Shown here piece after piece: positions 128 through 43,307 of a DNA stretch of 43,307 bases. The translations under genes and the position numbers were made by a program. How positions within the stretch are numbered: the stretch's first letter is position 1; every line of letters starts with the position of its first letter. Origin of the DNA: a virus; IMG/VR virus record IMGVR_UViG_3300044645_001327, positions 1 to 43,307 of that record; one strand, written 5' to 3'. Below the pieces are notes generated by a model that saw only the letters and a list, made by a program, of their open reading frames with translations, was not told the origin of the DNA and searched no databases.

Positions 128-242
128 GATTCAAAATACGACACGGGCGGGTGTGCCGGTCCCCGTTGTCTATGGCGAGATGCTGGTCGGCGGCATTGTC
201 GTTAGCGCTGGCGCCGACATTGTGCAGGTGTCAGGCGTATGA
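1..242 (+). CDS. Tail assembly protein I, C-terminal part (continues from 42844)
   Basis: This is the end of the lambda gpI-like tail-tip assembly gene whose start lies at 42844. Position 3 is the first complete codon here, and the frame matches that of 42844-43307 across the circle junction. The visible part holds the end of a hydrophobic Gly/Ala-rich stretch, then a hydrophilic linker, then a short domain with the VPVVYGEMLVGG motif typical of gpI-family C-termini. The stop at 240-242 overlaps the ATG of gene J (ATGA), as in many lambda-type tail operons. On the circle the protein is about 193 residues. In the family, gpI acts with gpJ, gpL and gpK in building the tail tip. It is cut only because of where the contig was opened, not by mutation. 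Confidence 0.85.
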   Translation, partial: LNAAVFGLGASLVLGGIAQLLTPTPKTDEDEGDPKKSFSFSGIQNTTRAGVPVPVVYGEMLVGGIVVSAGADIVQVSGV

Positions 243-6962: not shown

Positions 6963-7811
6963 ATGACACTTGTAGAACTCTGGGACGCCTTCCTCGCTGA
7001 GCGTTCTATTGCCTTGTGCCCAACAAGCCTTACCTCTGACTACCGGCAGGTTCGCAAGTGGTTGATTCGATGTCCTGTGCAGGACCTCAGCCACGCAAGA
7101 CAGGTGATGATCTGGGTCCTAGGCGAAAAGCCTGTGCTGTCGTCACGGCGCGTGGCGATGTACACCAAAAGCATGTACAAGTGGGCGGCGCAAGAGGATG
7201 TTGGCTACCTAGAACGCAACCCGCTGGCCAGCTTCAAAATGCCGAAGGCGCCGCAAAAAGACGAGGAGATTGTCGTAATACCACGCAATGAAGTCGGCAT
7301 AGTGCTTGCTGCACTTGCTGCAAAATGCAGCTATCAAGATGTCAACTGGTCGTGGTACACCGAGTTCATGCTGCAAACTGCAATGCGCACTGGTGAGGTG
7401 CGAGCTTTGAGATGGTCAGACATCAGGGAAAATAAGATCCTTGTACATAGCAACTGGACACTGACACACGGTTATAAAGACAGCACTAAAACCAACAAGA
7501 AGCGATGGGTGCCGTTGAACAGTAAATGCCAAGCCATCCTTGAGCAACTGCCACAGGAAAACGAGTGCATCTTCCCGTGGAATCGAGTGGCGTTTCAGAG
7601 TTACTTCCGTAAAAAGCTGCAGCCGTTGCATGGCGCTGGGTTGATCTCCCACCTGTACCGTCCGTACGACTGCAGGCATACGGCAATCAGCCGCTGGATT
7701 GAAGCCGGAATCCCAGTGCCACAGGTGGCTGCATGGGCCGGCAACACCAGCGAGGTGATTTTCAAGCACTACTGCAATACCACCCAAGAGTACGAGATGC
7801 CTGTACTATGA
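6963..7811 (+). CDS. int: Tyrosine recombinase / phage integrase
   Basis: This 282-residue site-specific recombinase would insert the phage circle into the host chromosome and is the main evidence for a temperate life cycle. Residues 1-90 form a SAM-like core-binding domain. Residues about 110-280 form the catalytic domain. The first catalytic Arg is R142 (MRTGEVRALRW). A Lys lies at about 178-180 (TKTNKKRWVPL). The second Arg box reads P-Y-D-C-R-H-T (R238), with Tyr235 where many family members have His. The usual LGH box is AWAGN, and the nucleophile is Tyr270 (IFKHY). Length is at the short end for phage integrases. There is no N-terminal arm-binding AP2-like domain that I can recognise. 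Repeated TGCCTA elements just downstream are a candidate attP. Confidence 0.93.
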   Translation: MTLVELWDAFLAERSIALCPTSLTSDYRQVRKWLIRCPVQDLSHARQVMIWVLGEKPVLSSRRVAMYTKSMYKWAAQEDVGYLERNPLASFKMPKAPQKDEEIVVIPRNEVGIVLAALAAKCSYQDVNWSWYTEFMLQTAMRTGEVRALRWSDIRENKILVHSNWTLTHGYKDSTKTNKKRWVPLNSKCQAILEQLPQENECIFPWNRVAFQSYFRKKLQPLHGAGLISHLYRPYDCRHTAISRWIEAGIPVPQVAAWAGNTSEVIFKHYCNTTQEYEMPVL

Positions 7812-7924: not shown

Positions 7925-8599
7925 ATGAATCTTTCGGGGCAGTCCTACGGGCTTCTGACTGTTGTCGCAGAAGCAGGAAAAACCACAGGGGCCAGGCCAG
8001 AAAAGTTATGGCTGTGTATGTGCCTTTGCGGCACAAATAAAACAGTACGGCAAAATAACCTACGAAGTGGTCATACCAAAAGTTGCGGGTGCCAAGCAAA
8101 AGAGATAAATAGAAAAATTCATACCACTCATGGAATGAAACATACAAGTACATATATTACGTGGTGTCAAATGAAAGCACGTTGCAACTCTCCCACCAGT
8201 ACCTCTTACGGTAACTACGGAGCAAAAGGAATAACTGTTTGCGATAGATGGGGCACTTCTTTTCAAAACTTTTTGGCAGATATGGGCGAAAAACCAGACT
8301 CTACCTACTCTATTGAAAGAATTGACAATGCAAAAGGATACTTTCCCGAAAATTGCCGTTGGGCTACCTCTTCCGAGCAAAATAGAAATTACGGACGGAA
8401 TGTTTTTATTGCCTATGCCGGGCGTGAGCAATGCTTGACCGACTGGGCAAGTGAGCTTGGCATAGGCAGGGCCACACTGCGCTACCGCTTAAAGGCTGGT
8501 TGGACGGTAGATGACGCTTTTAATTTGCCTGCTAGCATGGCCAATAGCCCTGCTACCCGAAATGGCGACAACGATTCAATGGCGTATCGCGCAGCTTGA
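7925..8599 (+). CDS. HNH/AP2-type homing-endonuclease-like protein
   Basis: This 224-residue protein belongs to a phage family of free-standing homing-endonuclease-like proteins. An N-terminal zinc-binding Cys cluster (C31, C33, C35, then C54 and C56 in SCGC) is followed by a block with YGNYGAKGITVCDRW...F..DMG..P (about 95-125). Next comes the family hallmark ERIDNAKGYFPENCRWAT (131-148) and then N-rich residues. A helix-turn-helix segment sits near the C-terminus (about 160-192: WASELGIGRATLRYRLKAGW). The reading frame is visibly more AT-rich than its neighbours and has its own promoter, both signs of a separately acquired gene. Its 3' end overlaps the next gene by 38 bp. DNA cleavage is inferred from family resemblance only. 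A similar gene sits at 29908. Confidence 0.7.
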   Translation: MNLSGQSYGLLTVVAEAGKTTGARPEKLWLCMCLCGTNKTVRQNNLRSGHTKSCGCQAKEINRKIHTTHGMKHTSTYITWCQMKARCNSPTSTSYGNYGAKGITVCDRWGTSFQNFLADMGEKPDSTYSIERIDNAKGYFPENCRWATSSEQNRNYGRNVFIAYAGREQCLTDWASELGIGRATLRYRLKAGWTVDDAFNLPASMANSPATRNGDNDSMAYRAA

Positions 8600-16067: not shown

Positions 16068-16305
16068 TGCGGTACTCCTCGGAATCAAGTTTGTCGATCA
16101 ACCTATTCAGATACCAGCGAGCTTTGCTGGCGTCAATGTGGGGACTGTCTTTAAGCCACAACCGGCTCATGTACTTAAGGACTTGCCACTGGAGCCCACC
16201 CACAACAGCGTCAGGGGCTTGCTTTACGCAATCCTCAATGAAGTCAATGACCTCAATTTTCCCCGCCGTGTAGTGACTGGGGTGGTTTACAACATCCTGT
16301 TTCAT
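16060..16305 (-). CDS. DUF3310 family protein
   Basis: The 81-residue protein contains VNHPSHYTAGKIEVIDFIED (from residue 6) and QVLKYMSRLWLKD...DASKARWYLNRLID, the two hallmark blocks of DUF3310, a small family very common in phages and often called a nucleotide-kinase-like or SaV protein. The biochemical role is not settled. It sits between the dCTP deaminase (ATGA overlap) and the zinc-ribbon protein, consistent with a role in nucleotide supply, which is inference from context. Confidence 0.85.
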   Translation of the reverse strand: MKQDVVNHPSHYTAGKIEVIDFIEDCVKQAPDAVVGGLQWQVLKYMSRLWLKDSPHIDASKARWYLNRLIDKLDSEEYRNG

Positions 16306-16814
16306 AGTTTGGCGGCAGTAACTTTCTGGTCAAAGTTGTAGTGCCCGACAACGGAATAATCCTCAGCCGGACGAGCAGACATCACGTGGAACACCAGCTG
16401 CCCAATCCGCATCCCGGGCCACAGTGCGACGGGATGAATAGCCCGTGCATTCTGTAGTTCCAGTGTGAGCTTGGAACCCTGCCAGCCCGGGTCACAGTAG
16501 CCAGCCATCAAGTGCTCAATACCAGAGCGAGCCCTGGAACTTTTAAGTGCAAACTGCCCGGCCAAAAACGACGGAAGGAAAAAAGTTTCGACTGTTTCCG
16601 CCAGAATGAATTCCTTCGGCGGCAACAAAAACGGGTGTTCTTCGGTGTAACCCCTAATGGAAAAGGGTTGCATCTGTGAAGTCAGTGGGACTTCAACGAG
16701 AAGATTCTCACCGAGTCTCACATCGAGACTGGCCGGGTTGACCAGTGCTGGGTCGTAAGGATCCACAAGGCCCTCTTCGCAGAGAGCCCGGATCTCTGTA
16801 TCACAGAGGATCAT
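16302..16814 (-). CDS. dcd: dCTP deaminase (Dcd/dUTPase superfamily)
   Basis: The 170-residue protein starts at ATG 16814 (MILCDTEIRAL), which overlaps the upstream stop by ATGA; the frame is open 20 codons further. It has the family signatures: VNPASLDVRLG (26-34), the KSSRARSGI block (91-99, with S93, R96) and AGYCDPGWQG...TLEL.N (104-122, with E119 as the likely catalytic Glu). dCTP deaminases make dUTP from dCTP, and some also hydrolyse it to dUMP, the precursor of dTMP. In the phage this would help raise the thymidine supply in a GC-rich host. The presence of the deaminase-type KSSRxR motif favours deaminase over plain dUTPase. Near-usual length (about 170-190). Confidence 0.88.
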   Translation of the reverse strand: MILCDTEIRALCEEGLVDPYDPALVNPASLDVRLGENLLVEVPLTSQMQPFSIRGYTEEHPFLLPPKEFILAETVETFFLPSFLAGQFALKSSRARSGIEHLMAGYCDPGWQGSKLTLELQNARAIHPVALWPGMRIGQLVFHVMSARPAEDYSVVGHYNFDQKVTAAKL

Positions 16815-17194
16815 GCGTGGACAATCACAGGTGCGGCCTGTTGCAGGGTGACGTGCTTCCAGGTCTTGCCCCACTTGATGCAGTTGATCGTGGTGAGGTG
16901 GACCTTGAAGTCACGGCTGATCGAGGTGGCACCCTCGCCCTTAGCCAGTCGCCGCTTGATTTCCAGCACCTGCTTGGTGTTAAGTGCCCGGTACCCACGG
17001 CGAGACTTACGAGTCTTAGTTTGAGACTCCGCCTTGGCAGGTGCTGTGGGTGTTTTCACTGCCGGCGTGGTGCCATCGAAGTTGACGGTCTGGGACGTTT
17101 CCAGCAGCGTGTGGATCGTGGCCAGTTGTTCGTCGATGGTCTTGATACTGTCCGACAGTGTGCGGACTTGTGTGTCAGAGAGGATGGTGAGCAT
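16811..17194 (-). CDS. HTH DNA-binding protein
   Basis: The protein has 127 residues from ATG 17194; the longer open frame to 17488 lies over another gene and has unnatural composition. Residues 1-40 form a helix with coiled-coil character (RTLSDSIKTIDEQLATIHTLLE). An Ala/Thr/Lys linker follows to residue 70. The second half holds a basic helix-turn-helix (ALNTKQVLEIKRRLAKGEG, then TSISRDFKVHLTTINCIKWG), of the type seen in resolvase-like or small phage regulators. A regulatory role is inferred. A -10-like TACACT (17221 down to 17216) lies 21 bp before the start. Confidence 0.65.
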   Translation of the reverse strand: MLTILSDTQVRTLSDSIKTIDEQLATIHTLLETSQTVNFDGTTPAVKTPTAPAKAESQTKTRKSRRGYRALNTKQVLEIKRRLAKGEGATSISRDFKVHLTTINCIKWGKTWKHVTLQQAAPVIVHA

Positions 17195-27433: not shown

Positions 27434-28681
27434 ATGGCCGACGCACCATCACTGCAGCTGCGATGGGCCCAGGGTGAAGTGTTTTCGAGCCGCAAACGCT
27501 TCCGTGTCCTAGTCGCAGGCCGCCGATTCGGCAAGAGCTACCTGTCTTGCATCGAATTGCTGCGTGGAGCAATCGAAAAGCCCGGCGAAACTTTTTTCTA
27601 CTGTGCCCCGACTTACCGAATGGCGAAAGACATCGCCTGGAAAGTCCTCAAACGCCTGGTCCCCAAGGTCTGGATCAAGTCAAAAAACGAAACCGACCTA
27701 AAGATCGAACTGGTCAACGGCAGCACGATCGAACTCAAGGGCACGGAAAACGCAATGGCCCTACGGGGCCGCAGCCTTTCGGGCGTGGTGCTCGACGAAG
27801 CCGCGTTCATGGACCGCGAAGTCTGGTTCGAAGTCATCCGCCCCGCCTTGGCCGACAAACAAGGCTGGGCCCTGTTCATTTCCACCCCAGATGGAACCGC
27901 GAGCTGGTTCTACGACATGTGGTGCTATTGCGACGAGGACGACCCGGACTGGTCCCGGTGGCAATTCACCACCATCCAAGGCGATAACGTCCCACCGGAA
28001 GAAATCGAAGCGGCCCGTGGCCAACTCGACCCTCGCACCTTCCGGCAAGAATTCGAGGCGAGCTTCGAAAACCTCTCGGGCCTGGTCGCGGTCAGCTTCT
28101 CGGACGACAACATCGACAAAACCGTCCAAGACCTACCAGTTCTCCCGCTTTTGCTGGGGGTGGACTTCAACATCGACCCAATGTCCGGCATCTGCGCGGT
28201 GAAAAAGGGCGACGTCCTCTGGGTATTCGACGAAATCATCATGACGGGCGGCGCGACCACCTGGGACCTGTGCGAAGAAATCCAGTCCCGCTACGGCGTG
28301 GAGCGCCGCATCATCGCGTGCCCGGACCCAACCGGCGGCGCCCGCAAAACCAGCGGCGTTGGCGCCACCGACCACAACATCCTGCGAAAATCCGGCTTCA
28401 CAGTCTCAAGCCCGCGATCCCCCTGGAAAATCCGCGACAAAATCACGTGCGTCAACACCGCGCTACTCGACGCCTCTGGAACCCGCCGCCTATTCATCCA
28501 CCCGAGATGTAAAGAATTAATAAAATCCCTCCGCACCTTGACCTACGCGCCCGGCACAGGCCTCCCAAACAAGAACCTAGGCGTGGATCACGCCTTCGAC
28601 GCCTTGGGCTACATGTGCCTACAGGTCTTCAACCTGGCAAAACCCGAAAACATGGGCAAGACCAACTACCGTGTGTGGTAA
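27434..28681 (+). CDS. terL: Terminase large subunit
   Basis: This 415-residue packaging motor and nuclease has Walker A AGRRFGKS (28-35), Walker B GVVLDEA (117-123, with the catalytic Glu at 122), and the coupling motif STPDG (150-154). The RNase H-like nuclease domain shows GVDFN (D244), a second acidic site around D266/E267 (VFDE) and VDHAFDALGY (D385, D389). It docks on the portal, pumps DNA into the procapsid by ATP hydrolysis and cuts the concatemer. Length is near the lower end for the family but both domains are complete. The residues do not tell cos from headful packaging. Confidence 0.95.
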   Translation: MADAPSLQLRWAQGEVFSSRKRFRVLVAGRRFGKSYLSCIELLRGAIEKPGETFFYCAPTYRMAKDIAWKVLKRLVPKVWIKSKNETDLKIELVNGSTIELKGTENAMALRGRSLSGVVLDEAAFMDREVWFEVIRPALADKQGWALFISTPDGTASWFYDMWCYCDEDDPDWSRWQFTTIQGDNVPPEEIEAARGQLDPRTFRQEFEASFENLSGLVAVSFSDDNIDKTVQDLPVLPLLLGVDFNIDPMSGICAVKKGDVLWVFDEIIMTGGATTWDLCEEIQSRYGVERRIIACPDPTGGARKTSGVGATDHNILRKSGFTVSSPRSPWKIRDKITCVNTALLDASGTRRLFIHPRCKELIKSLRTLTYAPGTGLPNKNLGVDHAFDALGYMCLQVFNLAKPENMGKTNYRVW

Positions 28682-28695
28682 GCGCAGGACTTACC

Positions 28696-28887
28696 ATGCC
28701 CGGTCACTACGGCGACAAGAAAGAACCCAAGAAAGGCGAGAAAAAAGTAGGAAAAGTCATGTCCGAGTACAAAGCTGGCACCTTGAAATCCAGCTCGGGC
28801 ACGAAAGTAAAAAGCCGCAAGCAGGCAATCGCCATCGCCATGAGCGAGGCCGGCATGAAAAAACCCACCAAAAAAGGTAAGAAGTAA
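28696..28887 (+). CDS. DUF6496-type small basic protein
   Basis: The protein has 63 residues from ATG 28696 (MPGHYGDKKEPKKGEKKVGK...), with the family core MSEYKAGTLKSSSGTKVKSR and KQAIAIAMSEAGM. It ends in a Lys-rich tail. This small family is widespread in phages and plasmids, and often lies near terminase or capsid genes. Function is not known; DNA binding is plausible from charge. The stop overlaps the next ATG (TAATG). Confidence 0.7.
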   Translation: MPGHYGDKKEPKKGEKKVGKVMSEYKAGTLKSSSGTKVKSRKQAIAIAMSEAGMKKPTKKGKK

Positions 28888-29051
28888 TGGCCAAGCCCGG
28901 TTTGTACAGCAACATTGCGGCCAAACGTAAGCGCATCGCAGCTGGCAGCGGCGAAAAGATGCGTAAGCCTGGCGCGAAGGGCGCCCCCACCGCCGCCGCC
29001 TTCAAGGCATCGGCCAAAACCGCCAAAAAGCCCACCAAAAAAGGTAAGTAG
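28887..29051 (+). CDS. Very small basic protein (GLYxNIxAKRKRIAAGSGEKMRKPG family)
   Basis: This 54-residue peptide (MAKPGLYSNIAAKRKRIAAG, then SGEKMRKPGAKGAPTAAAFK) is a well conserved small phage protein usually found near capsid or terminase genes. It ends in the same KKPTKKGK tail as the preceding gene, and the DNA there is nearly identical, which suggests exchange or duplication of gene ends. Function unknown. Confidence 0.65.
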   Translation: MAKPGLYSNIAAKRKRIAAGSGEKMRKPGAKGAPTAAAFKASAKTAKKPTKKGK

Positions 29052-29053
29052 CC

Positions 29054-29404
29054 ATGGCCCGTATCCCTAATACCGCAAAGGACAACTACTCCCACCTAAT
29101 CGAGTACACAGGCGGTGCCCTCACCGCCGTGAACGACTGGATGGAAGTAGACGCCCATAGCGACGGCTACACATTCGCAGCAACCGTAACCGGCGGCGCC
29201 AACTTCACACTCGCCCTTGAGTGCAGCTTCAACGGCAACGGCAACTGGTTCACTCTCGACACCAGCAAAAACATCAACTCAAACGGCGAATACGCTTATT
29301 TCTACGACGGCAAACCTGCCGCAAAAGTGCGTATGCGTATCGCTTCCATCAGCTCTGGTACACCTAACGTGGTGCCTCACATCGCTGTGGTTTACGAGGG
29401 CTGA
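29054..29404 (+). CDS. Putative virion structural protein
   Basis: This 116-residue protein starts MARIPNTAKDNYSHLIEYTG and shows an all-beta layout (GYTFAATVTGGANFTLALE, GNWFTLDTSKNIN, AKVRMRIASIS, VVPHIAVVYEG). Proteins with this layout occur near portal and capsid genes and may be decoration or head-associated proteins. The assignment is inference. It overlaps the next gene by 1 bp. Confidence 0.5.
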   Translation: MARIPNTAKDNYSHLIEYTGGALTAVNDWMEVDAHSDGYTFAATVTGGANFTLALECSFNGNGNWFTLDTSKNINSNGEYAYFYDGKPAAKVRMRIASISSGTPNVVPHIAVVYEG

Positions 29405-29601
29405 TGACCATCCACACGATCCACGGTCACCCCACCTTCATCGAAGTCGATGCCGAGACGGGTCGCACTGAAGTCACCTTTAATTTCCGCACGCCATCGG
29501 ACGCCGCCCTCTTTGCCGGCTTTATGGGCAACATTTTCACCGGCATCGAAGTCCTGGTTGACGTCGATGACGAAGTAGAAGAGGAAGAAGACGATGATTG
29601 A
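29404..29601 (+). CDS. Small acidic hypothetical protein
   Basis: The protein has 65 residues. Two beta strands (TIHTIHGHPTFIEVDAETG, RTEVTFNFR) and a helix (SDAALFAGFMGNIFTG) are followed by an extremely acidic tail (VDVDDEVEEEEDDD). It is coupled on both sides by 1- and 8-bp overlaps. Function unknown. Confidence 0.5.
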   Translation: MTIHTIHGHPTFIEVDAETGRTEVTFNFRTPSDAALFAGFMGNIFTGIEVLVDVDDEVEEEEDDD

Positions 29602-29866
29602 GTATCGCGGCGAACAATTCTCCGGCTACAACAAACCCAAGCGCACCCCCAACCACCCGAAAAAGTCCCACGTGGTGCTCGCCAAGGAAGGCGGCACGGT
29701 AAAACTCATCCGTTTCGGTCAGCAGGGCGTATCTGGCTCACCAGCACAAAAAGGAGAATCAGCGTCAGACAAAGCCAGAAGGGCATCATTCCAAGCGCGA
29801 CACGCTAAAAATATCGCCAAGGGCAAAATGAGCGCGGCTTGGTGGAGCGCAAAAGTTAAGTGGTAA
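29594..29866 (+). CDS. Conserved basic phage protein (RFGQQGVSGSP...ARHAKNIAKGKMSAAWWSAKVKW)
   Basis: This 90-residue protein (MIEYRGEQFSGYNKPKRTPN, then HVVLAKEGGTVKLIRFGQQG) ends in the conserved ARHAKNIAKGKMSAAWWS block. It is a familiar family in podo- and siphoviruses between terminase and portal genes, and its basic nature points to DNA or RNA binding or a head-interior role. No function is established that I know of. Confidence 0.65.
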   Translation: MIEYRGEQFSGYNKPKRTPNHPKKSHVVLAKEGGTVKLIRFGQQGVSGSPAQKGESASDKARRASFQARHAKNIAKGKMSAAWWSAKVKW

Positions 29867-29876
29867 TCGTCCTAAG

Positions 29877-29885
29877 TGGTATACT
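29877..29885 (+). promoter_or_regulatory. Extended -10 promoter TGGTATACT
   Basis: Near-perfect extended -10, ending 22 bp before GTG 29908. It serves a single endonuclease-like gene inside the late region. Confidence 0.55.
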
Positions 29886-29907
29886 GTGAGTACCTGCACT
29901 CGCGGAA

Positions 29908-30360
29908 GTGGCAACTTGGACCTACGTAAGCGTGGAATGCGCCTGCGGTAAGCAGTCTTCTATACGGATAGACCAGTTCAACAGAAAGAACGGCGTGTGG
30001 TCCTGCCGTTCTTGTACGTACAAAGGACGTACAAGCCCTAGGAAAGGTACAGGGGTAAAAAACGATCCCAGTATGGAGCAATGCCGGCGCAGTTATTACA
30101 AAGCCCGCCAGCGCGTAAAGACAAACCACAAAAACGCGTACGGACATGTCGAGTTCCGCTTCACGTCCTTTGAAGAGTGGTTTGAAGAGTTGGGTCCACG
30201 GCCTGTGGGTACGTCTGTAGACCGTATAGATCCGATGGGCCACTACGAGCCCGGAAATGTACGGTGGGCAACAGTCGAACAGCAAGCCAAGAATCGAAAC
30301 CCTCGTTTCACTTGGACACCGAGGTCCCAGAAACTTCCTGCTGCTGAATCCAAGTTTTGA
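29908..30360 (+). CDS. HNH/AP2-type homing-endonuclease-like protein (second copy of family)
   Basis: The protein has 150 residues from GTG 29908. An N-terminal four-Cys zinc site (C11, C13, C32, C35; VECACGK ... WSCRSC) is followed by the family block FTSFEEWFEELGPRPVGTSV and DRIDPMGHYEPGNVRWAT, related to ERID...GY.PENCRWAT in the 7925 gene. It ends in EQQAKNRNPRF. There is no C-terminal HTH as in the other copy. It interrupts the usual terminase-portal gene order and has its own promoter, as expected for an intron-less mobile endonuclease. Catalytic activity is inferred from family resemblance only. Confidence 0.65.
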   Translation: MATWTYVSVECACGKQSSIRIDQFNRKNGVWSCRSCTYKGRTSPRKGTGVKNDPSMEQCRRSYYKARQRVKTNHKNAYGHVEFRFTSFEEWFEELGPRPVGTSVDRIDPMGHYEPGNVRWATVEQQAKNRNPRFTWTPRSQKLPAAESKF

Positions 30361-30514
30361 GTTCCGCGACGTATTCGCGTAGCTCTTGCGCTTTAGCGGC
30401 GTGCCACCCGTTTCCAGTACGTCTGTACAACTCGCCGTGCCGGTCAATGGCCATCAGCATCTGGTGGATTAGCACGTTCCACGGTGCCCGGACAGGTGTA
30501 TTCCACTCGCGCAT
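30308..30514 (-). CDS. Small hypothetical protein on the opposite strand
   Basis: The 68-residue protein (MREWNTPVRAPWNVLIHQML, then helix AAKAQELREYVAELKTWIQQ) is helical. Its LREYVAELKTWI end is familiar from small cyanophage and cyanobacterial proteins. It is convergent with the endonuclease-like gene (53-bp overlap) and lies within the late operon, so it would be expressed antisense to late transcripts. Function unknown. Confidence 0.55.
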   Translation of the reverse strand: MREWNTPVRAPWNVLIHQMLMAIDRHGELYRRTGNGWHAAKAQELREYVAELKTWIQQQEVSGTSVSK

Positions 30515-30566
30515 CGTAAAGACGCCGGGTTTACTGCCAAAATAGGAAAGAAGTAGGAGTTAAACC

Positions 30567-32006
30567 GTGGTGTACAGCGCCAACATCCCCCCAACTGGCG
30601 CTGTCGTCAGCGAGTCCCCATTTGTCCGCAACCTGGACGTCATCGCCATGATGCCGGACTGGGGCGTAATGGCAGCCGTCACCCGTGGCACCAACTACAT
30701 CCGCGACCTCGCCGAAACGTACCTCCCCCAAGAACCCCGCGAAGACCAGGACGCCTACACCACCCGCGTCGATCGGTCCGTACTTTCGCCGTACACCAGC
30801 CGCCTAATTGAAACCGCTGCCGGCGCAATCCTCCGCAAGCCCATCCATATCGAGGGCGACCAGTATTGGCTGGATCTCGCCCAGAACATCGACGGCCTTG
30901 GCTCCAGCATCAACGAGTACGCCCGCCGCGCACTGGTCAGCAGCCTGACCTATGGCCACAGCGCCATTTTGATCGACTATCCACCGGCAACCGGCGCCCT
31001 TAATTTGGCGGAAGAACGGGCAATGGGCCGCCGCCCGTACTTCGTCCACGTCGATGCCCCGCAAATCTGGGGTTGGCGTAAAGAAGACGGCACCAACCGG
31101 CTACTGCAAGTCCGCATCCACGATTACGACGTCCGCCCCCTGAACGAATTCGGCGAAGAACAGATCGAGCAAATGCGCGTGATCTACCCGGGCCGCTACG
31201 ACCTCTACACGTTGGGCCAGGAACTCGTCGAATTCACCGCAACCGGCGACTACAGCCTGAACGAAATCCCCCTAGTCCCGATCTACAGCAATCGCCGGGG
31301 CCTGCTGATTTCCCAGCCACCGCTGCTGGACATCGCCAACCTGAACATCACGCATTACCAAAGGCAGGCTGACTTAATTCACGCCCTCCACATCGCCGCC
31401 ATGCCCACGCTGGTCCTAGAGGGCTGGGACGACACAACGGGCAACGCAACGATGGGCGTGAACTACGCCATCGCCATGCAACCGGGCAACAAGGCGTACT
31501 ACGTCCAAGCCGATGCAACCAGTTTCGACGCCCAAATGGCCGAACTCCAGTCACTGGAATCCCAGATGTCCACGTTGGGCGTCACCAAGTTGTTCGGCCA
31601 GAAGTTTGTGGCCGAATCTGCCGAGGCAAAGCGCATCGACCAGGCCCAGTCCAACAGCGTCCTGTCGATCATCAGCCAAGAACTGGAATCCGCGCTCAAC
31701 CAAGCCTTCGCCTTCGCGGCCCAGTACGTGGGCATGGAACCGCCAGAAATCACAATCGACCGCGACTTCGACTACTACCGCCTGATCGGCCAGGACGTCG
31801 CTGTACTGACCCAACTCAACGAGATGGGCAAGATCAGCGATGCCATGCTGCTGGAGATCCTACGCCGTGGCGAAGTCCTCCCCGACAACATCAGCATCGA
31901 AGACGAACTGGAAGCCAGCACCGAAAACGCCCTGGAACTAGCCGAACCAGCCGAAAGCAGCGACGACGAAGACATGGACGAGGGCACAGAAGACCTCAAT
32001 TCTTAA
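30567..32006 (+). CDS. Portal protein (DUF4055-type)
   Basis: The protein has 479 residues from GTG 30567 (or GTG 30570), with AGTAGGAG in front. It shows the DUF4055 portal features: VTRGTNYIRDLAETYLPQE near 38, SPYTSRLIETAAGAILRKP (about 72-90), the helix-rich clip/wing region with NLNITHYQRQADLIHALHIA (about 257-276), and the C-terminal crown region with TSFDAQMAELQSLESQMSTL (about 318-337). The acidic C-terminus (EDELEASTENALELAEPAE, ending DEDMDEGTEDLNS) is typical. The dodecameric portal forms the DNA channel and docks terminase and connector proteins. The scaffold follows after a short promoter. Confidence 0.9.
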   Translation: MVYSANIPPTGAVVSESPFVRNLDVIAMMPDWGVMAAVTRGTNYIRDLAETYLPQEPREDQDAYTTRVDRSVLSPYTSRLIETAAGAILRKPIHIEGDQYWLDLAQNIDGLGSSINEYARRALVSSLTYGHSAILIDYPPATGALNLAEERAMGRRPYFVHVDAPQIWGWRKEDGTNRLLQVRIHDYDVRPLNEFGEEQIEQMRVIYPGRYDLYTLGQELVEFTATGDYSLNEIPLVPIYSNRRGLLISQPPLLDIANLNITHYQRQADLIHALHIAAMPTLVLEGWDDTTGNATMGVNYAIAMQPGNKAYYVQADATSFDAQMAELQSLESQMSTLGVTKLFGQKFVAESAEAKRIDQAQSNSVLSIISQELESALNQAFAFAAQYVGMEPPEITIDRDFDYYRLIGQDVAVLTQLNEMGKISDAMLLEILRRGEVLPDNISIEDELEASTENALELAEPAESSDDEDMDEGTEDLNS

Positions 32007-36382: not shown

Positions 36383-37153
36383 ATGGCCACCACTGTTCTG
36401 TCCGGCACGTCCGGCGCTCTGTATTACAAGCCCGCCGGCACCACCGGCACCTTCGGTGAAGCTGGCGTCAACGCCACGACCGATGTCATCACCGTCGAGC
36501 CGTTCCTGAACTTCAAGGTTGGCGATCCTGTTGTCTTCAGCATCTTCAACCCCCTGACCAATAGCACCGGCACCGGCACGTTGCCTGCTGGTATCACTGG
36601 CGGCACCACCTACTACGTGCTGAGCTACACCGCAGCTACTGGCGCCCTTACGGTGTCCGCTACTGCCGGCGGTGTGATTCTGCCGATCACCGATGACGGC
36701 ACTGTCGCCGCCCCCAACGAGTTCAAAGTTGCCTATGCAGCTTTTGCCGCTGTGGGCCAAGTCCGCGACTGGAGCTTCGAGATCACCCGCGCCGAGATCG
36801 ACGTCACCACGATCGGTCAAACCCCCGGCCAGTACGTGCCTTTCCGTAGCTTCATCGCCGGTTTCGCCGACGGCTCTGGCACCGCAACGGTCTACATGAC
36901 CAATGAGGATGCCGCGCTGTCCAACCGGATGATTGAGGACGTGCTTCAGCGCCAGCAAACCGGCGCCGCCTTCAAGCTGTACACCGATCAGGTCTTCAGC
37001 GGTGGCACCCTGAGCGAATCGCTTAGCCGTTCGATCGCCTTCGATGCAGTGCTGACCTCGGCCAGCCTGAACATCAACCCGGACGACGCCCAGTCTGTGA
37101 CTGTCAACTTCCGTCCGTCGGCCACCCCCACCTTCGACTTCGCCAAGTCCTGA
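36383..37153 (+). CDS. Major tail tube protein
   Basis: This 256-residue protein (MATTVLSGTSGALYYKPAGT...) has a beta-sandwich pattern of tail-tube proteins. An inserted domain (about residues 40-115: FKVGDPVVFSIFNPLTNSTG, TYYVLSYTAATGALTVSATA) is probably on the outer tube surface. The core includes GQVRDWSFEITRAEIDVTTI, SFIAGFADGSGTATVYM, and a C-terminal strand NPDDAQSVTVNFRPS. Length and place directly before the G/GT chaperones match lambda gpV. Double stop (TGA TAA) and terminator follow, as at the capsid gene, fitting high expression. Confidence 0.85.
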   Translation: MATTVLSGTSGALYYKPAGTTGTFGEAGVNATTDVITVEPFLNFKVGDPVVFSIFNPLTNSTGTGTLPAGITGGTTYYVLSYTAATGALTVSATAGGVILPITDDGTVAAPNEFKVAYAAFAAVGQVRDWSFEITRAEIDVTTIGQTPGQYVPFRSFIAGFADGSGTATVYMTNEDAALSNRMIEDVLQRQQTGAAFKLYTDQVFSGGTLSESLSRSIAFDAVLTSASLNINPDDAQSVTVNFRPSATPTFDFAKS

Positions 37154-37245: not shown

Positions 37246-37593
37246 ATGCCTTCCTCGATTCCTGTCAGGGCGATTGACCGTCTTCGCAAGGCGGCAAACC
37301 TGGAACCCAGCAAAAAGTCCGTGGAACTGTCTGACGGCACCACCTTTGAGATGTGGGTCAGCCCGCTGACCATGGCCGAGCGTGAACGCGCCCAAAAACA
37401 GGCCAAGTCGGACGACGCCAATGCCTTCGCCCTCCAACTGCTGATTACCAAGGCACTGGACGAAAACGGCGCCAAGCTGTTCGCCCCCGGCGAGATCGAC
37501 GTCCTGAAGAACGAAGTCAAGGACAAGGACCTCCAGACCTTGATGCTGGCAATCCTCACCGACGACGCCGAGCCTATCGACCCAAAGCCCTAG
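37246..37593 (+). CDS. Tail assembly chaperone G (zero-frame product)
   Basis: This 115-residue protein (MPSSIPVRAIDRLRKAANLE...) is soluble and helical, with ELSDGTTFEMWVSPLTMAER (25-44) and a helix-rich end (IDVLKNEVKDKDLQTLMLAI). Position between the tail tube and the tape measure, and the length, match lambda gpG-type chaperones, which coat the tape measure during tail assembly. The stop TAG is preceded by GAC CCA AAG CCC, so a canonical slippery heptamer C_CCA_AAG (37581-37587) is placed two codons before it. Some ribosomes should shift to the -1 frame and make a longer G-T fusion. Confidence 0.82.
   Translation: MPSSIPVRAIDRLRKAANLEPSKKSVELSDGTTFEMWVSPLTMAERERAQKQAKSDDANAFALQLLITKALDENGAKLFAPGEIDVLKNEVKDKDLQTLMLAILTDDAEPIDPKP
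37581..37587 (+). promoter_or_regulatory. Programmed -1 frameshift site C_CCA_AAG
   Basis: The heptamer has the form X_XXY_YYZ in the phase of gene G. The same relation is known for lambda G/GT (GGGAAAG) and conserved in long-tailed phages. Confidence 0.8.
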
Positions 37594-37778
37594 CCGCCGA
37601 ACTGCGTAAGGACAACTGGCTCATGCTGGAATTTGGCGTTGCCAAAGAGCTGGGCCTAAGTCTGACCACCGTTCGCACCACGTTCACTGCCGAAGAACTG
37701 CTTGGCTGGAGCGCCTATTTCAGCATCCTGAACGAGGACCAGCAAAAGGAAATCGACAAAGCCAAACGCCGCCGCTAA
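37587..37778 (+). CDS. T extension of the tail assembly chaperone GT (-1 frame)
   Basis: After slippage the ribosome reads from 37587 (GCC CTA GCC GCC GAA CTG) to the TAA at 37776-37778. This adds 63 residues (ALAAELRKDNWLMLEFGVAK..., TFTAEELLGWSAYFSILNED, end KAKRRR) to the first 114 of G, for a 177-residue GT protein. In lambda the T part binds the tail tube protein while G coats the tape measure; the same split is expected here. The frame has an internal ATG (37623), but no ribosome-binding site and no upstream start, so it is not a separate gene. Confidence 0.78.
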   Translation, partial: ALAAELRKDNWLMLEFGVAKELGLSLTTVRTTFTAEELLGWSAYFSILNEDQQKEIDKAKRRR

Positions 37779-37832: not shown

Positions 37833-40800
37833 GTGGCCTCTTACGACGCAAAAATTAACGTACTTCTTTCTGGCCTGCGAGACTTAGTCCTGCTGGAAGA
37901 CCGCCTTGAAAAAATTGGCAGTATAGTCAATACATTAAATAAAACACCTATAGCGTTAAATGTAGGCGGAAGAGGAAAAGAAAGGGATCTTTCAGGACAA
38001 TTAAGTAAAGAAGTAAACGATTATGTACGCGAATGGGTAAACGGAAATAAACAAATAGGAAAGTCTATAAACGCTGTAGAGCAGCAGGTCGCAGCGTTTA
38101 ACCAACTATTGCGGGAAACCGCAATGGTACAACAAGACCCAGCGGCAAAAGCCGCTGTAGAGAATCTTGCCGCAGCTTGGGCAGATACTACCCGTGCAGC
38201 CACGCAATATGACAAAAAATTAAATGATATCCAACGTAAAGCACTCGGTCTGCAGCCGCAAGCTGTTCGTGATCTTGAAGTAGCCAGAAGAGAAGCGTTC
38301 GTAGCAAGTGGAGGGAAAAAAGCTCGTCGTGAAAGGGCTTCTTTTTTAGCCGGAGCACCTGTAAGTCAATTTCCAGTTGGCCCTGCACAAGCCTCTACTC
38401 GCCGTCGTTTTGAGGGTGATACTTCAGTAGAAAGAGCAGAAAGTGCCTTAGTCGCCAAAGAACGTCGGGCTCAACGCGCACTAAATATACAATTTTTTGC
38501 AGAAGAAAAAGCTCAAGTGCTTGAACTGGATAGGCTTCGTACCGCCAGTGCACAAAAGCAAACCCAACAGATTCGCGCTATAGGTAAAGCCGTCAGCGGT
38601 AGCTTAAGTTCTGCTGCGATCGGGGGTGCGTTTCCTCTACTGTTTGGGCAGAGTCCGCAAGCTGCGGTTGGTGGCGCTCTGGGGGGCTTACTTGGTGGTG
38701 CCGGCGGCGGTTTTGCCGGTTCTTTGATTGGCACCGCGTTAGGTGAACTTGAAGCTGCCAAGGCCCGCACAAAGGAATTAGCCCTGGAACTTGGCTTTAC
38801 TTCTACCCAGGCAAAAACACTAGCTACCGCTTTTGAATTGGCCGGACGTAATAGCCAACAACTTGAAGCCGCAGTTACAAATATCCAGGGATTAGGTTTA
38901 TCCACACAGGAAACAGCATCTGCTGTCAAAATTGCGGTTGAGCTGTCGCAAGAATACGGAGGCAGTGTTGAAAAAATTGCACAGGCTTTTGCGGATACAC
39001 TTGAATCCGGCAAAGTAAGTATTGCGACTTTAAATAAATTTACCGCTCAAGGTATTCCTATTCAGGATGAACTGGCGAAAAAATTTGGCGTCAGCAGAAC
39101 AAAACTTCTTGAGATGGCTAAAGACGGCCAAATAAGCGTGCAGCAGGTAACGGATGTTCTTGTTGACATGGGAATTGAAGCCGAAAAAACAGCAAGTAAA
39201 GGTGAAACCGGTTTTGATAAATTTACGAAAGCGGTCAACGATATAGCCACCGCCGTAGCCGGGGCAGCTGGAGCACTGCTTAAAGTACTTATTCCCGCTT
39301 TAGATGCAGTACTAACGAAATTATCTGACATAATTAACCGTGCAACAGTAGCTATAAATTTAATTACAGACGCGCAAGTAGGCGAAGCGTCGGCAGCTTT
39401 GTTTAGGTCTGGAACAGCTCGTGGTTTTCTGGGAGGGGTGTTTACAAATAAAGGAAATATAGACGATTTAACTCAAGGATTAAAGAGTTTACAGCCGCTT
39501 TCCGCTAAAACCAAAGAACAGTTTGACCGTATTGCCGCCGTAGCACAGCGATACAGAACAGAACTACAACAGTATGGCGGAACTTTGGGTGAATACGCTG
39601 TAGGCACAGCGCAGGTAGAATTTAATCGCGTGCAAGCTGATCTTGAAAAAGCCAGAAAAACTGTAGGTGTTTCTGTTCCACCTGCTGCAATAACGGGCAT
39701 AAACGCACCAGCAAATCTTCCGCCGTCCGGCGATGGCAGCAGTAAACCAAAAAAAGACACAGCTGCTGAAGAAAAGCAACGTCTGGACGCTTTACTTAAG
39801 CAACTCCAAGAAGAGATTCGAATTCGTACTGAAACTATAGGTCTAGAAGAAAGTTTAGTTGAGGCACGTTCAGACCAGAACGACGAACTGGAAGCACAAA
39901 TACAGTCCAGTATCCGTCTACTGGATATCGGTAGCAAGCAAGCCGTCGTACAGAAAAATTTTGAAGCCGGTAAGATTGGACGTGCCGAATACACATTACG
40001 GCTGCAGCTACTGGAACTTGACAGAACTGAAGATCAAATTAAATACGAAGAAGACCTGAACCGTATTTTTAAGGAACGGTACGGCATTACCGACGCAATC
40101 GCACGACTAGCCCGTGAAGCGCGTACTACCGCGTTCGGTGGAACCGGTGCCACAGGAACATTTAGAACAGATCTAAACCTTATGCCCGGGCTAACAGGAG
40201 GGGCCTTAGGTGAAGAGTACGACCAAGTTAAAACACAGTTAGAAGAATTACTTAAAGTTGAAAATCAAGTAGCTAGTGCGGCTGACACCATCGGTCAAGC
40301 GTTCGGTACCTCTTTTAAGGGTATCCTCGATGGCACATTGTCCGCACAGGAAGCTTTAGCCGGTTTCTTTAGTTCTGTTGCCGATTCTTTTGCCGACATG
40401 GTGTCGCAAATGATCGCGCAGTGGATACGGATGCAGATAATCGGCCTGGCGCAAAGTTTGCTCCCTGGCGGTAGCACTGTTTTTCCGCAAGGCGTTGGTA
40501 ATTTTTCCGGTGCTTTCGGGCCTGCAAGTTCCGTTTCTTTTAATCCGGGCGTATCTTTCGGCGGTTTCCGGGCAGCAGGCGGACCAGTTTCCGGTGGAAC
40601 CTCCTACATGGTGGGCGAACGCGGTCCCGAGTTGTTCGTGCCGGGCCGCAGCGGCAGCATCGTCCCCAATGACAAGATGGGTGGCGGCAGCACCAACGTG
40701 GTAGTGAACGTAGACGCCAAGGGCAGCAGCGTGGCTGGTGATGAGCAAGGCGCCAACCAGCTTGGCAGGGTCATCAGTGCTGCGGTACAGTCAGAATTGA

Positions 40801-40838
40801 TTAAACAGCAGCGGCCCGGCGGTCTTCTCGCACGCTAA
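37833..40838 (+). CDS. Tape measure protein
   Basis: The protein has 1001 residues from GTG 37833. It has long helical and coiled-coil stretches (about 10-260), a Gly/Ala-rich hydrophobic core (about 255-305, AIGGAFPLLFGQ, GGALGGLLGGAGGGFAGSLI), and the conserved tape-measure domain with TGFTSTQAKTLATAFELAGR and GIPIQDELAKKFGVSRTKLL (about 325-450). A transmembrane-like helix is near 470-490. The C-terminal part (about 900-1001) has RAAGGPVSGGTSYMVGERGP, typical of siphovirus tape measures. By tail-length rules, about 1000 residues imply a tail of roughly 150 nm. From 37850 to about 40500 the gene is markedly more AT-rich than its flanks. Confidence 0.92.
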   Translation: MASYDAKINVLLSGLRDLVLLEDRLEKIGSIVNTLNKTPIALNVGGRGKERDLSGQLSKEVNDYVREWVNGNKQIGKSINAVEQQVAAFNQLLRETAMVQQDPAAKAAVENLAAAWADTTRAATQYDKKLNDIQRKALGLQPQAVRDLEVARREAFVASGGKKARRERASFLAGAPVSQFPVGPAQASTRRRFEGDTSVERAESALVAKERRAQRALNIQFFAEEKAQVLELDRLRTASAQKQTQQIRAIGKAVSGSLSSAAIGGAFPLLFGQSPQAAVGGALGGLLGGAGGGFAGSLIGTALGELEAAKARTKELALELGFTSTQAKTLATAFELAGRNSQQLEAAVTNIQGLGLSTQETASAVKIAVELSQEYGGSVEKIAQAFADTLESGKVSIATLNKFTAQGIPIQDELAKKFGVSRTKLLEMAKDGQISVQQVTDVLVDMGIEAEKTASKGETGFDKFTKAVNDIATAVAGAAGALLKVLIPALDAVLTKLSDIINRATVAINLITDAQVGEASAALFRSGTARGFLGGVFTNKGNIDDLTQGLKSLQPLSAKTKEQFDRIAAVAQRYRTELQQYGGTLGEYAVGTAQVEFNRVQADLEKARKTVGVSVPPAAITGINAPANLPPSGDGSSKPKKDTAAEEKQRLDALLKQLQEEIRIRTETIGLEESLVEARSDQNDELEAQIQSSIRLLDIGSKQAVVQKNFEAGKIGRAEYTLRLQLLELDRTEDQIKYEEDLNRIFKERYGITDAIARLAREARTTAFGGTGATGTFRTDLNLMPGLTGGALGEEYDQVKTQLEELLKVENQVASAADTIGQAFGTSFKGILDGTLSAQEALAGFFSSVADSFADMVSQMIAQWIRMQIIGLAQSLLPGGSTVFPQGVGNFSGAFGPASSVSFNPGVSFGGFRAAGGPVSGGTSYMVGERGPELFVPGRSGSIVPNDKMGGGSTNVVVNVDAKGSSVAGDEQGANQLGRVISAAVQSELIKQQRPGGLLAR

Positions 40839-41176
40839 TGGCTACGTTCCCCGACTACAAACCACGCGTTGGCGCCAGCAAGAACAGTGCACCTAAGGTG
40901 CGCTCTACGCGGTTTGGTGACGGATATGAACAACGCGTACAGTTCGGCCTCCAACAAGACCCGAAGGAGTGGACACTGGAGTGGAATGTAACCGAGGAGG
41001 TATCAGACGAAATCGAAACGTTTCTTGAAGCCCGTGGTGGTTCTGAGTCGTTTGACTGGACGCCACCTGATACCAGCACCAGCTACAAGTGGGTATGCAG
41101 TGAGTGGCAAAAGACAATCGACGAGCCATTCCGCGCTGTCATCCGCGCCACTTTTCGCCAAGTGTATGAGCCGTGA
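40838..41176 (+). CDS. Minor tail protein M (gpM-like)
   Basis: This 112-residue protein (MATFPDYKPRVGASKNSAPK...) has the phage minor tail family pattern: RFGDGYEQRVQFGLQQDPKE, W.L.W, then FLEARGGSESFDWTPPD and a closing W...(I)RA.FRQVYEP. In lambda, gpM is part of the distal tail ring. It is coupled to L by GTGA overlap and to the tape measure by TAATG. Confidence 0.9.
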   Translation: MATFPDYKPRVGASKNSAPKVRSTRFGDGYEQRVQFGLQQDPKEWTLEWNVTEEVSDEIETFLEARGGSESFDWTPPDTSTSYKWVCSEWQKTIDEPFRAVIRATFRQVYEP

Positions 41177-42150: not shown

Positions 42151-42854
42151 CAATGACCTGGCGCGACGCAGCATTGGATCACGCCAAAGCGGAACAACCC
42201 CGCGAGGCCTGTGGGTTGCTGGTGGTCATCAAAGGCCGCGAGCATTACATCCCATGCCGCAATCAAGCGGCAGCACCCGATCAGATGTTTGTGCTGTCAA
42301 CCGAGGACTACGCCGCAGCCGAAGATCAAGGAGAGGTGTTGGCTATTGTTCACAGCCACCCAAGCACACCACCGCATCCATCACCGGCAGACCGCGCCGC
42401 ATGTGAAGCCAGCGGCTTGCCTTGGTACATTGTCAACCCCAACCTAGAAACTTGGGGCGAATGCAAGCCATGCGGTTATAAGGCGCCATTGATTGGCCGC
42501 GAGTGGGTGTGGGCGGTGCATGACTGCTGGACACTGGCGCGTGACTGGTATGCCGAGCAGGGCATCAAGCTACGCGACTGGGAGCGCTGCGCCAACCCAG
42601 AAGACTTTCAAGCCAAGCCGTATTTTGATGATTGCTGGAAGGCGACGGGTTTCCGCGAGTTGCTGCCTGATGAAGAACTAGAAAAAGGTGACCTGTTGTT
42701 TATGAGCATCAGCAGCCCTGGCCTGAACCATTGCGCCGTGTATCTAGGCGATCAGATGGTGTTGCATCATATGCAAAGCCGTTTGAGTAGCCGTGACCTT
42801 TACGGCGGGTGGCTACTAAAATGCACAGGAAGGAGGTTGCGTCATGCTGCGTAA
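42147..42854 (+). CDS. Tail tip assembly protein K (JAMM peptidase + NlpC/P60)
   Basis: This is a 235-residue, two-domain protein as in lambda gpK. Residues 1-100 are a Mov34/JAMM metalloprotease with E20 (PREACGLL), H69 and H71 ([14 protein letters not shown]) and D82 as ligands. Residues 115-235 are NlpC/P60 with C127 (VHDCWTL) and H195 ([10 protein letters not shown]), a peptidoglycan or protein hydrolase. Such proteins help tail-tip maturation or wall penetration. Start is the ATG overlapping gene L's stop (ATGA). The end overlaps gene I by 11 bp. Confidence 0.92.
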
Positions 42855-43307
42855 GATCAAGCTGTACGGTGCCCTCGCTAAGTTTGTCGGCCATCGGGTG
42901 CTAGAGGCAGATGTCGCCACTGCTGCCGAGGCCGTGCGTTTTCTGCTGACCAATTGGCCAGAGCTGGAAGCTCACATGGCGCAGCAGCACTACCGGGTCC
43001 ACACTGCCGGCGAAGACCTGACGCTGGAAGACATCCACAACCCGATGGGCCGCGAGATCCAAATTGTGCCAGTGATGGCCGGCGCTGGTGCCATTGGGCG
43101 GATTCTGCTGGGCATTGCGTTGATTGCAGTTGCTTCTGTGGTCACCTTCGGCACGGTCGGCGGTTTATTTGCCGCTGGCGCACTTAATGCCGCAGTTTTT
43201 GGCTTAGGTGCTTCCTTGGTTTTGGGCGGTATCGCTCAATTGCTTACCCCTACACCCAAAACTGACGAAGACGAAGGCGACCCCAAAAAAAGTTTCAGCT
43301 TTAGCGG
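42844..43307 (+). CDS. Tail assembly protein I, N-terminal part (continues at 1-242)
   Basis: The gene begins at ATG 42844 ([20 protein letters not shown]...), runs off the contig and continues in frame at base 3 to the stop at 240-242. The N-terminal 80 residues are the ubiquitin-like domain typical of gpI, and residues about 78-130 form a Gly/Ala-rich hydrophobic region ([20 protein letters not shown]). Two membrane-like segments and the C-terminal domain complete it. The gpI family acts in tail-tip assembly with J, K and L. It overlaps K by 11 bp, as in lambda-type operons. Confidence 0.88.
43181..43307. repeat. Right copy of the 127-bp identical contig ends
   Basis: Identical to bases 1-127 and inside gene I; marks circular closure. 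Confidence 0.95.

What the first reader, a model, noticed from the sequence alone, without database searches (positions are those of the whole stretch)
37246..37778. G/GT tail chaperone frameshift with slippery site CCCAAAG
Seen: C_CCA_AAG in phase of gene G two codons before its TAG, and an open -1 frame of 63 codons without its own start. Known: long-tailed phages make gpG and gpGT at a fixed ratio by this mechanism. The pair would be missed by plain gene callers, which would report only G and nothing in 37594-37778.
Basis: partly seen in the sequence, partly recalled or inferred. Interest (0 to 1): 0.5.

Follow-up and report, generated by a model that had tools for sequence, protein, structure and literature searches.

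The report
Cyanophage tail chaperone with ribosomal frameshift
A virus of cyanobacteria appears to make two versions of the helper protein that builds its tail by letting some ribosomes slip back one base near the end of the gene, a well-known phage trick whose slip site and direction differ among this virus's relatives.

Summary
In a Synechococcus-type phage with an integrase, gene G (37246-37593) lies just before the tape measure gene and carries C_CCA_AAG at 37581-37587. This is the only in-phase XXXYYYZ in G and sits two codons before the TAG. A -1 shift adds a 63-codon T domain (37587-37775).

Of the 80 best viral loci kept, 79 have T in the -1 frame at the same place: CCCAAAG 28, CCCAAAA 28, AAAAAAC 3, CCCCAAG 20. 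T is under purifying selection in that frame, and its model is a confident helical domain. G's model has the HK97 tail assembly chaperone as top PDB match. No stimulatory RNA structure was found within 60 nt of the window's site.

The pair is an ordinary new member of a known kind. The wider family is more interesting. Around one lysine codon it uses XXXYYYZ heptamers, a lone A_AAG, a non-canonical C_CCC_AAG and, in 194 of 389 classified places (a share set by my queries), a +1 shift on AAA_AG. The tree needs at least four changes of direction. A published survey says direction is conserved among orthologues using ribosomal frameshifting; a review already lists tailed phages as a broad exception. 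No expression data exist.

The parts
37246..37593 (+). Gene G, tail assembly chaperone, short product (115 aa, TAG stop)
   Evidence: phrog_344 tail assembly chaperone E 2.1e-5 and phrog_20784 E 4e-33; model m47b72f784fba matches 2ob9 and 3klu
37581..37587 (+). Slippery heptamer C_CCA_AAG; tRNAs on CCA AAG re-pair with CCC AAA
   Evidence: among 67 distinct G genes of the window's own query set, 64 have Pro-Lys here, with CCA in 51 and CCC in 13, never CCG or CCT; elsewhere in these genes CCA is 22% of Pro codons. C_CCA_AAG is called highly shift-prone in E. coli (PMC5009743, passage)
37587..37778 (+). T domain in the -1 frame (63 codons 37587-37775, stop 37776-37778), made as the C-terminus of GT (177 aa)
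   Evidence: pN/pS 0.19 in this frame, 1.43 and 1.86 in the others; T model pLDDT 94.3; 34, 37 and 41 of 47 T rows match phrog_337, phrog_14766 (both tail protein) and phrog_26456 (unknown)
37383..37385 (+). Upstream TGA in the -1 frame (5' limit of the overlap)
37623..37625 (+). Internal ATG in the T frame, codon 13; possible start of a T fragment (rival reading)
   Evidence: 7 of 62 distinct T sequences have Leu there
36383..37153 (+). Upstream neighbour, probable major tail protein
   Evidence: phrog_1407 major tail protein E 0.0017, weak; 70% nt identity to a KBS-S-2A gene over its matched part
37833..40838 (+). Downstream neighbour, tape measure protein
   Evidence: Pfam TMP_3 E 1.7e-11, phrog_1538 E 5.8e-18
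40838..41176 (+). Minor tail protein (Phage_min_tail)
   Evidence: Pfam PF05939 E 3.6e-27

Best explanation
G is the tail assembly chaperone of a lambda-type tail in a cyanophage. Most ribosomes end at TAG 37591 and make G (115 aa). At C_CCA_AAG some ribosomes slip back one base: the tRNAs on CCA and AAG re-pair with CCC and AAA, and reading goes on in the -1 frame to make GT (177 aa). By analogy with lambda, many G and few GT coat the tape measure protein, and T recruits the major tail protein. Shown by sequence: the heptamer in phase, the open and selected -1 frame, conservation, gene order, and a predicted chaperone fold of G. Inferred: that the shift happens, how often, and what GT does.
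For: Heptamer, phase and 63-codon T. Of 80 loci kept, 79 have a 62-63 codon T in the -1 frame; canonical heptamer in 59, CCCCAAG in 20, one in the +1 frame. At the Pro position CCA in 51 of 64 distinct genes against 22% elsewhere in the same genes. T frame pN/pS 0.19 against 1.43 and 1.86 (1,472, 803 and 188 of 1,500 random pairs passed the pS filter), with conservation also before the internal ATG. Gene order. G model: 2ob9 HK97 tail assembly chaperone, Foldseek prob 1.00, E 1.1e-3, TM 0.46/0.49; 3klu YqbN prob 0.99, E 4.3e-2. T model pLDDT 94.3. BFVD entry D6PII1 (179 aa) matches both the G model (97 columns, 44% identity) and the T model (50 columns, 36%), which suggests G and T joined in one chain. 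C_CCA_AAG is shift-prone in E. coli (PMC5009743, passage).
Against: No downstream structure beyond chance at the window's site (100 nt z -0.03; 60 nt z +1.0 against synonymous shuffles), and none for CCCAAAR relatives over 60 nt (mean z +0.25 and +0.31). Over 90 nt those relatives do score lower (mean z -1.02 and -1.59; 29% and 54% below -1.5), so a more distant element is not excluded. Neither G nor T of the window matches Pfam; Phage_TAC_13 matched only 3 of 56 G rows, best E 0.0036. A sequence profile of G found no solved structure. No PDB match of G's model reaches E 0.001, and the model is only of moderate confidence (pLDDT 70.6). Twenty of 80 close relatives lack a canonical heptamer. 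T has only weak, unrelated solved-structure matches. No expression data.
Confidence: 0.93

Rival explanations
1. T is a separate small protein started at the internal ATG (37623) or by reinitiation after G's stop; no fusion is made.
For: ATG at T codon 13 in 55 of 62 distinct T sequences. AAGGA lies 10 nt upstream of it. S-H1's record annotates such a piece.
Against: T codons 4-12, before that ATG, are conserved in the -1 frame (variation by codon position 0.107, 0.067, 0.283). 7 of 62 have Leu codons in place of ATG. A slippery heptamer would then have no purpose, yet CCA is strongly preferred at the site (51 of 64 against 22% elsewhere).
Confidence: 0.04
2. Transcriptional slippage rather than ribosomal slippage joins the frames.
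For: Transposase families that differ in direction are ascribed to transcriptional slippage (PMC3711429, passages), and this family also differs in direction.
Against: The longest run at the window's site is three bases (CCC, AAA); the +1 relatives have runs of four or five A. Long homopolymers are usually needed (recalled).
Confidence: 0.02
3. The second frame is a sequencing error or a decayed remnant of a single GT gene.
For: None found.
Against: 79 of the 80 contigs kept show the same frame relation, with 62 distinct T sequences in the 77 places compared. T is under purifying selection.
Confidence: 0.01

Closest known systems
Phage lambda G/GT tail assembly chaperone frameshift
   Same: Gene order (major tail protein, G, T, tape measure), -1 shift on an XXXYYYZ heptamer a few codons before G's stop, T without a start at the junction.
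   Different: No Pfam family in common found. Slippery site CCCAAAG instead of lambda's GGGAAAG (lambda's site recalled). Efficiency unknown.
HK97 tail assembly chaperone (PDB 2ob9) and B. subtilis YqbN (3klu)
   Same: Predicted fold of G (ranks 1-3).
   Different: 8-16% identity; TM about 0.5.
Cyanophage KBS-S-2A (HQ634187) G and the unannotated T after it
   Same: Homologous G and T, 58% identity over 95% of GT; same place.
   Different: Uses AAAAAAC with a downstream hairpin. T is not annotated.
Listeria phage PSA and archaeal HSTV-2 (+1), phage Mu (-2)
   Same: Tailed phages using other directions than -1 in capsid, tail shaft or tail assembly genes (PMC5009743, passages).
   Different: Those are distant phages. 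Here direction changes inside one protein family at about one place.

Membership tests
Lambda-type G/GT tail assembly chaperone frameshift | Short gene between major tail protein and tape measure protein | tested here: met
   (major tail protein match weak, E 0.0017)
Lambda-type G/GT tail assembly chaperone frameshift | Slippery heptamer in phase just before the stop of G | tested here: met
   C_CCA_AAG at 37581; only in-phase XXXYYYZ in G
Lambda-type G/GT tail assembly chaperone frameshift | Overlapping T frame without a start at the junction, conserved as protein | tested here: met
Lambda-type G/GT tail assembly chaperone frameshift | Frame relation conserved in relatives | tested here: met
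   79 of the 80 loci kept have the -1 frame; farther relatives include +1
Lambda-type G/GT tail assembly chaperone frameshift | Tail assembly chaperone sequence family or fold for G | tested here: met
   phrog_344 E 2.1e-5; Foldseek 2ob9 prob 1.00, E 1.1e-3; no Pfam match for the window's G
Lambda-type G/GT tail assembly chaperone frameshift | GT made at a low fixed ratio to G | not testable with these tools
   needs expression data
Lambda-type G/GT tail assembly chaperone frameshift | G binds tape measure protein, T binds major tail protein | not testable with these tools
   needs binding or complementation tests
Programmed transcriptional slippage | Long homopolymer at the shift site | tested here: not met
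   longest run at the site is 3 bases

The most novel reading that the evidence does not exclude
This is one family of cyanophage tail chaperones in which the recoding signal has been replaced repeatedly around one lysine codon near the end of G. It uses two-tRNA -1 heptamers (CCCAAAR, AAAAAAC, GGGAAAG), a one-tRNA A_AAG with a 13-16 nt frame overlap, a non-canonical C_CCC_AAG, and a +1 shift on AAA_AG. At least four changes of direction occurred. Hairpins within 60 nt follow most AAAAAAC sites tested and not CCCAAAR sites. If real in cells, it is a natural experiment against the rule that frameshift direction is conserved among orthologues. A bolder reading not excluded: CCCCAAG phages use a short tRNA hop from AAG to the AAG 8 nt further on (perhaps 0.04).
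Probability: 0.7. Interest if true: 0.58.

Novelty: new member of a known kind. Interest (0 to 1): 0.38.

Why it matters
The window's feature fills an annotation gap: T is not annotated in four of the five annotated relatives' records that I opened (KBS-S-2A, S-2L, P-HS2, MED4-117). The family around it offers a controlled comparison of how a low-rate recoding signal evolves: related proteins, about the same place, opposite slip directions, with and without a stem-loop. It can be tested with reporters in one host. A published survey (PMC3711429, passages) uses conserved direction as a mark of ribosomal frameshifting, and this family would be an exception.

Tried and rejected
Separate T start, transcriptional slippage and sequence decay: see rivals. 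Stop readthrough was rejected because frame 0 after TAG does not encode T. A downstream stimulator within 60 nt of the window's site was sought and not found; an upstream Shine-Dalgarno-like stimulator was only looked for by eye, and no clear one was seen. Rfam found nothing in the window nor in 28000-30700.

A -2 shift for the +1-frame relatives was rejected. In the 63 places with a 5-nt overlap only TTR, AAA and AG[CT] can carry the shift, and only AAA to AAA re-pairs (my reasoning).

Relatives in bacterial genomes: alignment A3 against genome contigs gave 70 pattern matches and none confirmed; the second scan then allowed was not used. T's solved-structure look gave Z up to 3.3 with unrelated chains only.

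A first codon-choice count was circular for the CCCAAAR class, because the class is defined by the heptamer. It was replaced, which uses the window's whole query set and leaves the site out of the background.

Not in print: the listings of searches (several cut short, e.g. 20 of 62 papers, 15 of 59) showed no paper on frameshifting in this cyanophage family. Passages were searched in three: PMC11237433 (phage Mic1; its 'frameshift' hits are host mutations), PMC6157547 (S-LBS1) and PMC3751600 (KBS2A), where the word frameshift does not occur. Only open-licence PMC is held. Xu, Hendrix and Duda 2004 was not read. PRFect's motif figure lies in a supplement that could not be read.

Rows dropped before counts: 6 of 395 places whose contig ends too early. 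For the tree, 383 of 389 rows passed the length limits and were clustered to 81 representatives; L125 was then dropped for a branch of over 5 changes per column. At least three contigs were fetched twice (L122/L289, L123/L290, L091/L288), so counts are of places, not of independent phages.

Full report
What was checked. G (37246-37593) ends ...ATC GAC CCA AAG CCC TAG. CCCAAAG at 37581-37587 is in phase and is the only XXXYYYZ in phase in G. The -1 frame then runs 63 codons to TAA 37776. In 26 plus-strand genes that I picked from the ORF lists (8,361 codons) there are 14 in-phase XXXYYYZ sites with Y = A or T, and only this one lies next to a stop codon.

Where it lies. The tape measure gene follows (PF20155, E 1.7e-11), then Phage_min_tail and, further on, a JAB-NlpC/P60 protein. 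Before it is a protein with a weak major tail protein match. G matches the tail assembly chaperone family phrog_344 (E 2.1e-5). The window is a whole virus record of 43,307 bases with an integrase match (phrog_1) whose DNA is 84% identical to Synechococcus phage S-LBS1's integrase. The G/T region's nearest named relative is cyanophage KBS-S-2A. The host is therefore probably a Synechococcus-like cyanobacterium (inference).

Close relatives. The sites are CCCAAAG 28, CCCAAAA 28, AAAAAAC 3 and CCCCAAG 20. The last locus, L038, has a window-like G joined to a different T in the +1 frame. In 62 distinct T sequences the -1 frame has pN/pS 0.19; the two other frames give 1.43 and 1.86 (from 1,472, 803 and 188 of 1,500 random pairs that passed a pS filter). 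The residues before the internal ATG are conserved too, and 7 of 62 lack that ATG. In 67 distinct G genes of this set, 64 have Pro-Lys at the site: CCA in 51 and CCC in 13, never CCG or CCT. Elsewhere in the same genes CCA is 22% and CCG plus CCT 38% of 333 Pro codons.

Structure. G's model (mean pLDDT 70.6, moderate) has HK97 tail assembly chaperone 2ob9 (two chains, prob 1.00, E 1.1e-3 and 1.2e-3) and YqbN 3klu (prob 0.99, E 4.3e-2) as its first three PDB rows; the other rows listed have prob 0.21 or less, and no row reaches E 0.001. T's model is confident (pLDDT 94.3) and all helical. A viral protein of 179 aa, D6PII1, matches both models. T rows match 'tail protein' families phrog_337 (34 of 47) and phrog_14766 (37 of 47); no T row of 47 matched Pfam at E 0.01.

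The wider family. Seven viral scans and the named phages gave 395 places in all, 389 with T found: 195 with T in the -1 frame and 194 in the +1 frame. This split reflects which queries I used, not abundance. Sites: CCCAAAG 33, CCCAAAA 28, AAAAAAC 30, AAAAAAA 2, GGGAAAG 1, CCCCAAG 20, and A_AAG 81 (frame overlap only 13 or 16 nt). In the P-HS2 query set AAG stands 9 nt before the stop in 82 of 82 rows, always after an A, while AAG is 187 of 643 Lys codons elsewhere in those genes. All 194 +1 places have AAA followed by AG (AGC 184, AGT 8, AGG 2), and in 193 of 194 the T frame opens exactly at that AAA, the codon before it forming a +1-frame stop. An eighth scan gave 80 loci near phage S-H1, and 80 of 80 have AAAAAAC at one fixed place. 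T was found by profile in the -1 frame in 54 of these; the other 26 were misparsed at an upstream stop.

The place. A lysine at the shift site is at least 90% conserved in alignments A4 and A6 (K114). In CCCAAAG the lysine codon is the second slip codon; in AAAAAAC and +1 sites the same aligned lysine is the first. For the S-H1, P-HS2, S-2L and AG-345-A17 groups the alignment near the junction has gaps, so 'the same codon' is less certain there.

Direction on the tree. On 80 representatives of joined G and T pieces without the shift codons, direction needs 5 changes; well-supported branches force at least 4, and 0 of 200 bootstrap trees need only one. Holding all +1 rows as one clade is rejected (AU p 0.0013). 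Cautions: the bootstrap had not settled, long branches meet, the root is not inferred, and L038 may be a recombinant or a chimeric contig. PMC3711429 (passages) states that direction is conserved among orthologues that use ribosomal frameshifting. PMC5009743 (passages) already names tailed phages as an exception across different phages. So the broad fact is known; fine-scale switching within one family is what I have not seen described in the searches listed.

Stimulators. Against synonymous shuffles, 60 nt downstream: CCCAAAG mean z +0.25 (21 sequences), CCCAAAA +0.31 (28), AAAAAAN -2.15 (24; 75% below -1.5), CCCCAAG -1.31 (11), A_AAG -0.89 (40 of 58 folded), +1 -0.41 (40 of 139 folded), the one GGGAAAG -1.99. 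S-H1 set -2.03 (40 of 53 folded; 75% below -1.5). Over 90 nt the picture is less clean: CCCAAAG -1.02, CCCAAAA -1.59, AAAAAAN -3.07, CCCCAAG -1.04, A_AAG -0.01, +1 -0.98, S-H1 -0.91. In 16 chosen rows (15 AAAAAAN and L120) the hairpin next to the site has both-sided changes at 5 of 10 pairs, with breaks at 3. An exception is L052, an AAAAAAC site in the window's own clade without a hairpin (z +0.76). My reading (inference) is that heptamers shift-prone in bacteria need no nearby hairpin and AAAAAAC does. Being all-coding sequence, the pair counts are supportive rather than proof.

CCCCAAG. In 20 of 80 close relatives CCA is CCC, so the lysine tRNA would face CAA, not AAA. Most likely the proline tRNA alone slips on C_CCC (inference; Z_ZZN as the minimal -1 site is in PMC5009743, passage). 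A hop from AAG to the AAG in the T frame 8 nt further is possible and untested.

Verdict. The finding is a well-supported and ordinary lambda-type G/GT frameshift in a cyanophage family; the family-level turnover of the signal is the part worth a follow-up.

Noticed in passing
L038, L083, L109, L110, L112-L116, L118, L119, L122, L123, L209-L287 (not L261, L265), L289-L294, L297-L395 (not L387): T lies in the +1 frame in 194 of 389 classified places, always with AAA_AG[CTG], at about the place of the -1 sites; at least four direction changes on the tree.
   Followed up: yes
L014-L021, L025, L041, L053, L057, L059, L061, L064, L068, L071, L072, L076, L077 (end of G): Twenty close relatives have non-canonical C_CCC_AAG; those folded and shown mostly have a GGAG...CUCC hairpin downstream.
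   Followed up: partly
   Followed up: partly
L038:3614-4145: G is 92% identical to the window's up to residue 109, then a different T in the +1 frame: a possible recombination junction, or a chimeric contig, at the shift site.
   Followed up: no
window 6963-7811: Integrase, 84% identical in DNA to Synechococcus phage S-LBS1: the phage is probably temperate.
   Followed up: partly
window 7925-8599 and 29908-30360: HNH endonuclease match (phrog_374) after the integrase, and an ORF upstream of the portal gene that looks HNH-like by eye; no Rfam match around the latter.
   Followed up: partly
window 239-3655 and 42844-43305: The tail module is cut by the record's ends (open gene at the right end, central tail fibre J match at the left), as one would expect of a permuted or circular genome opened at random.
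   Followed up: no
window 16302-16874 (-): dCTP deaminase match (phrog_1663, E 7.6e-46).
   Followed up: no
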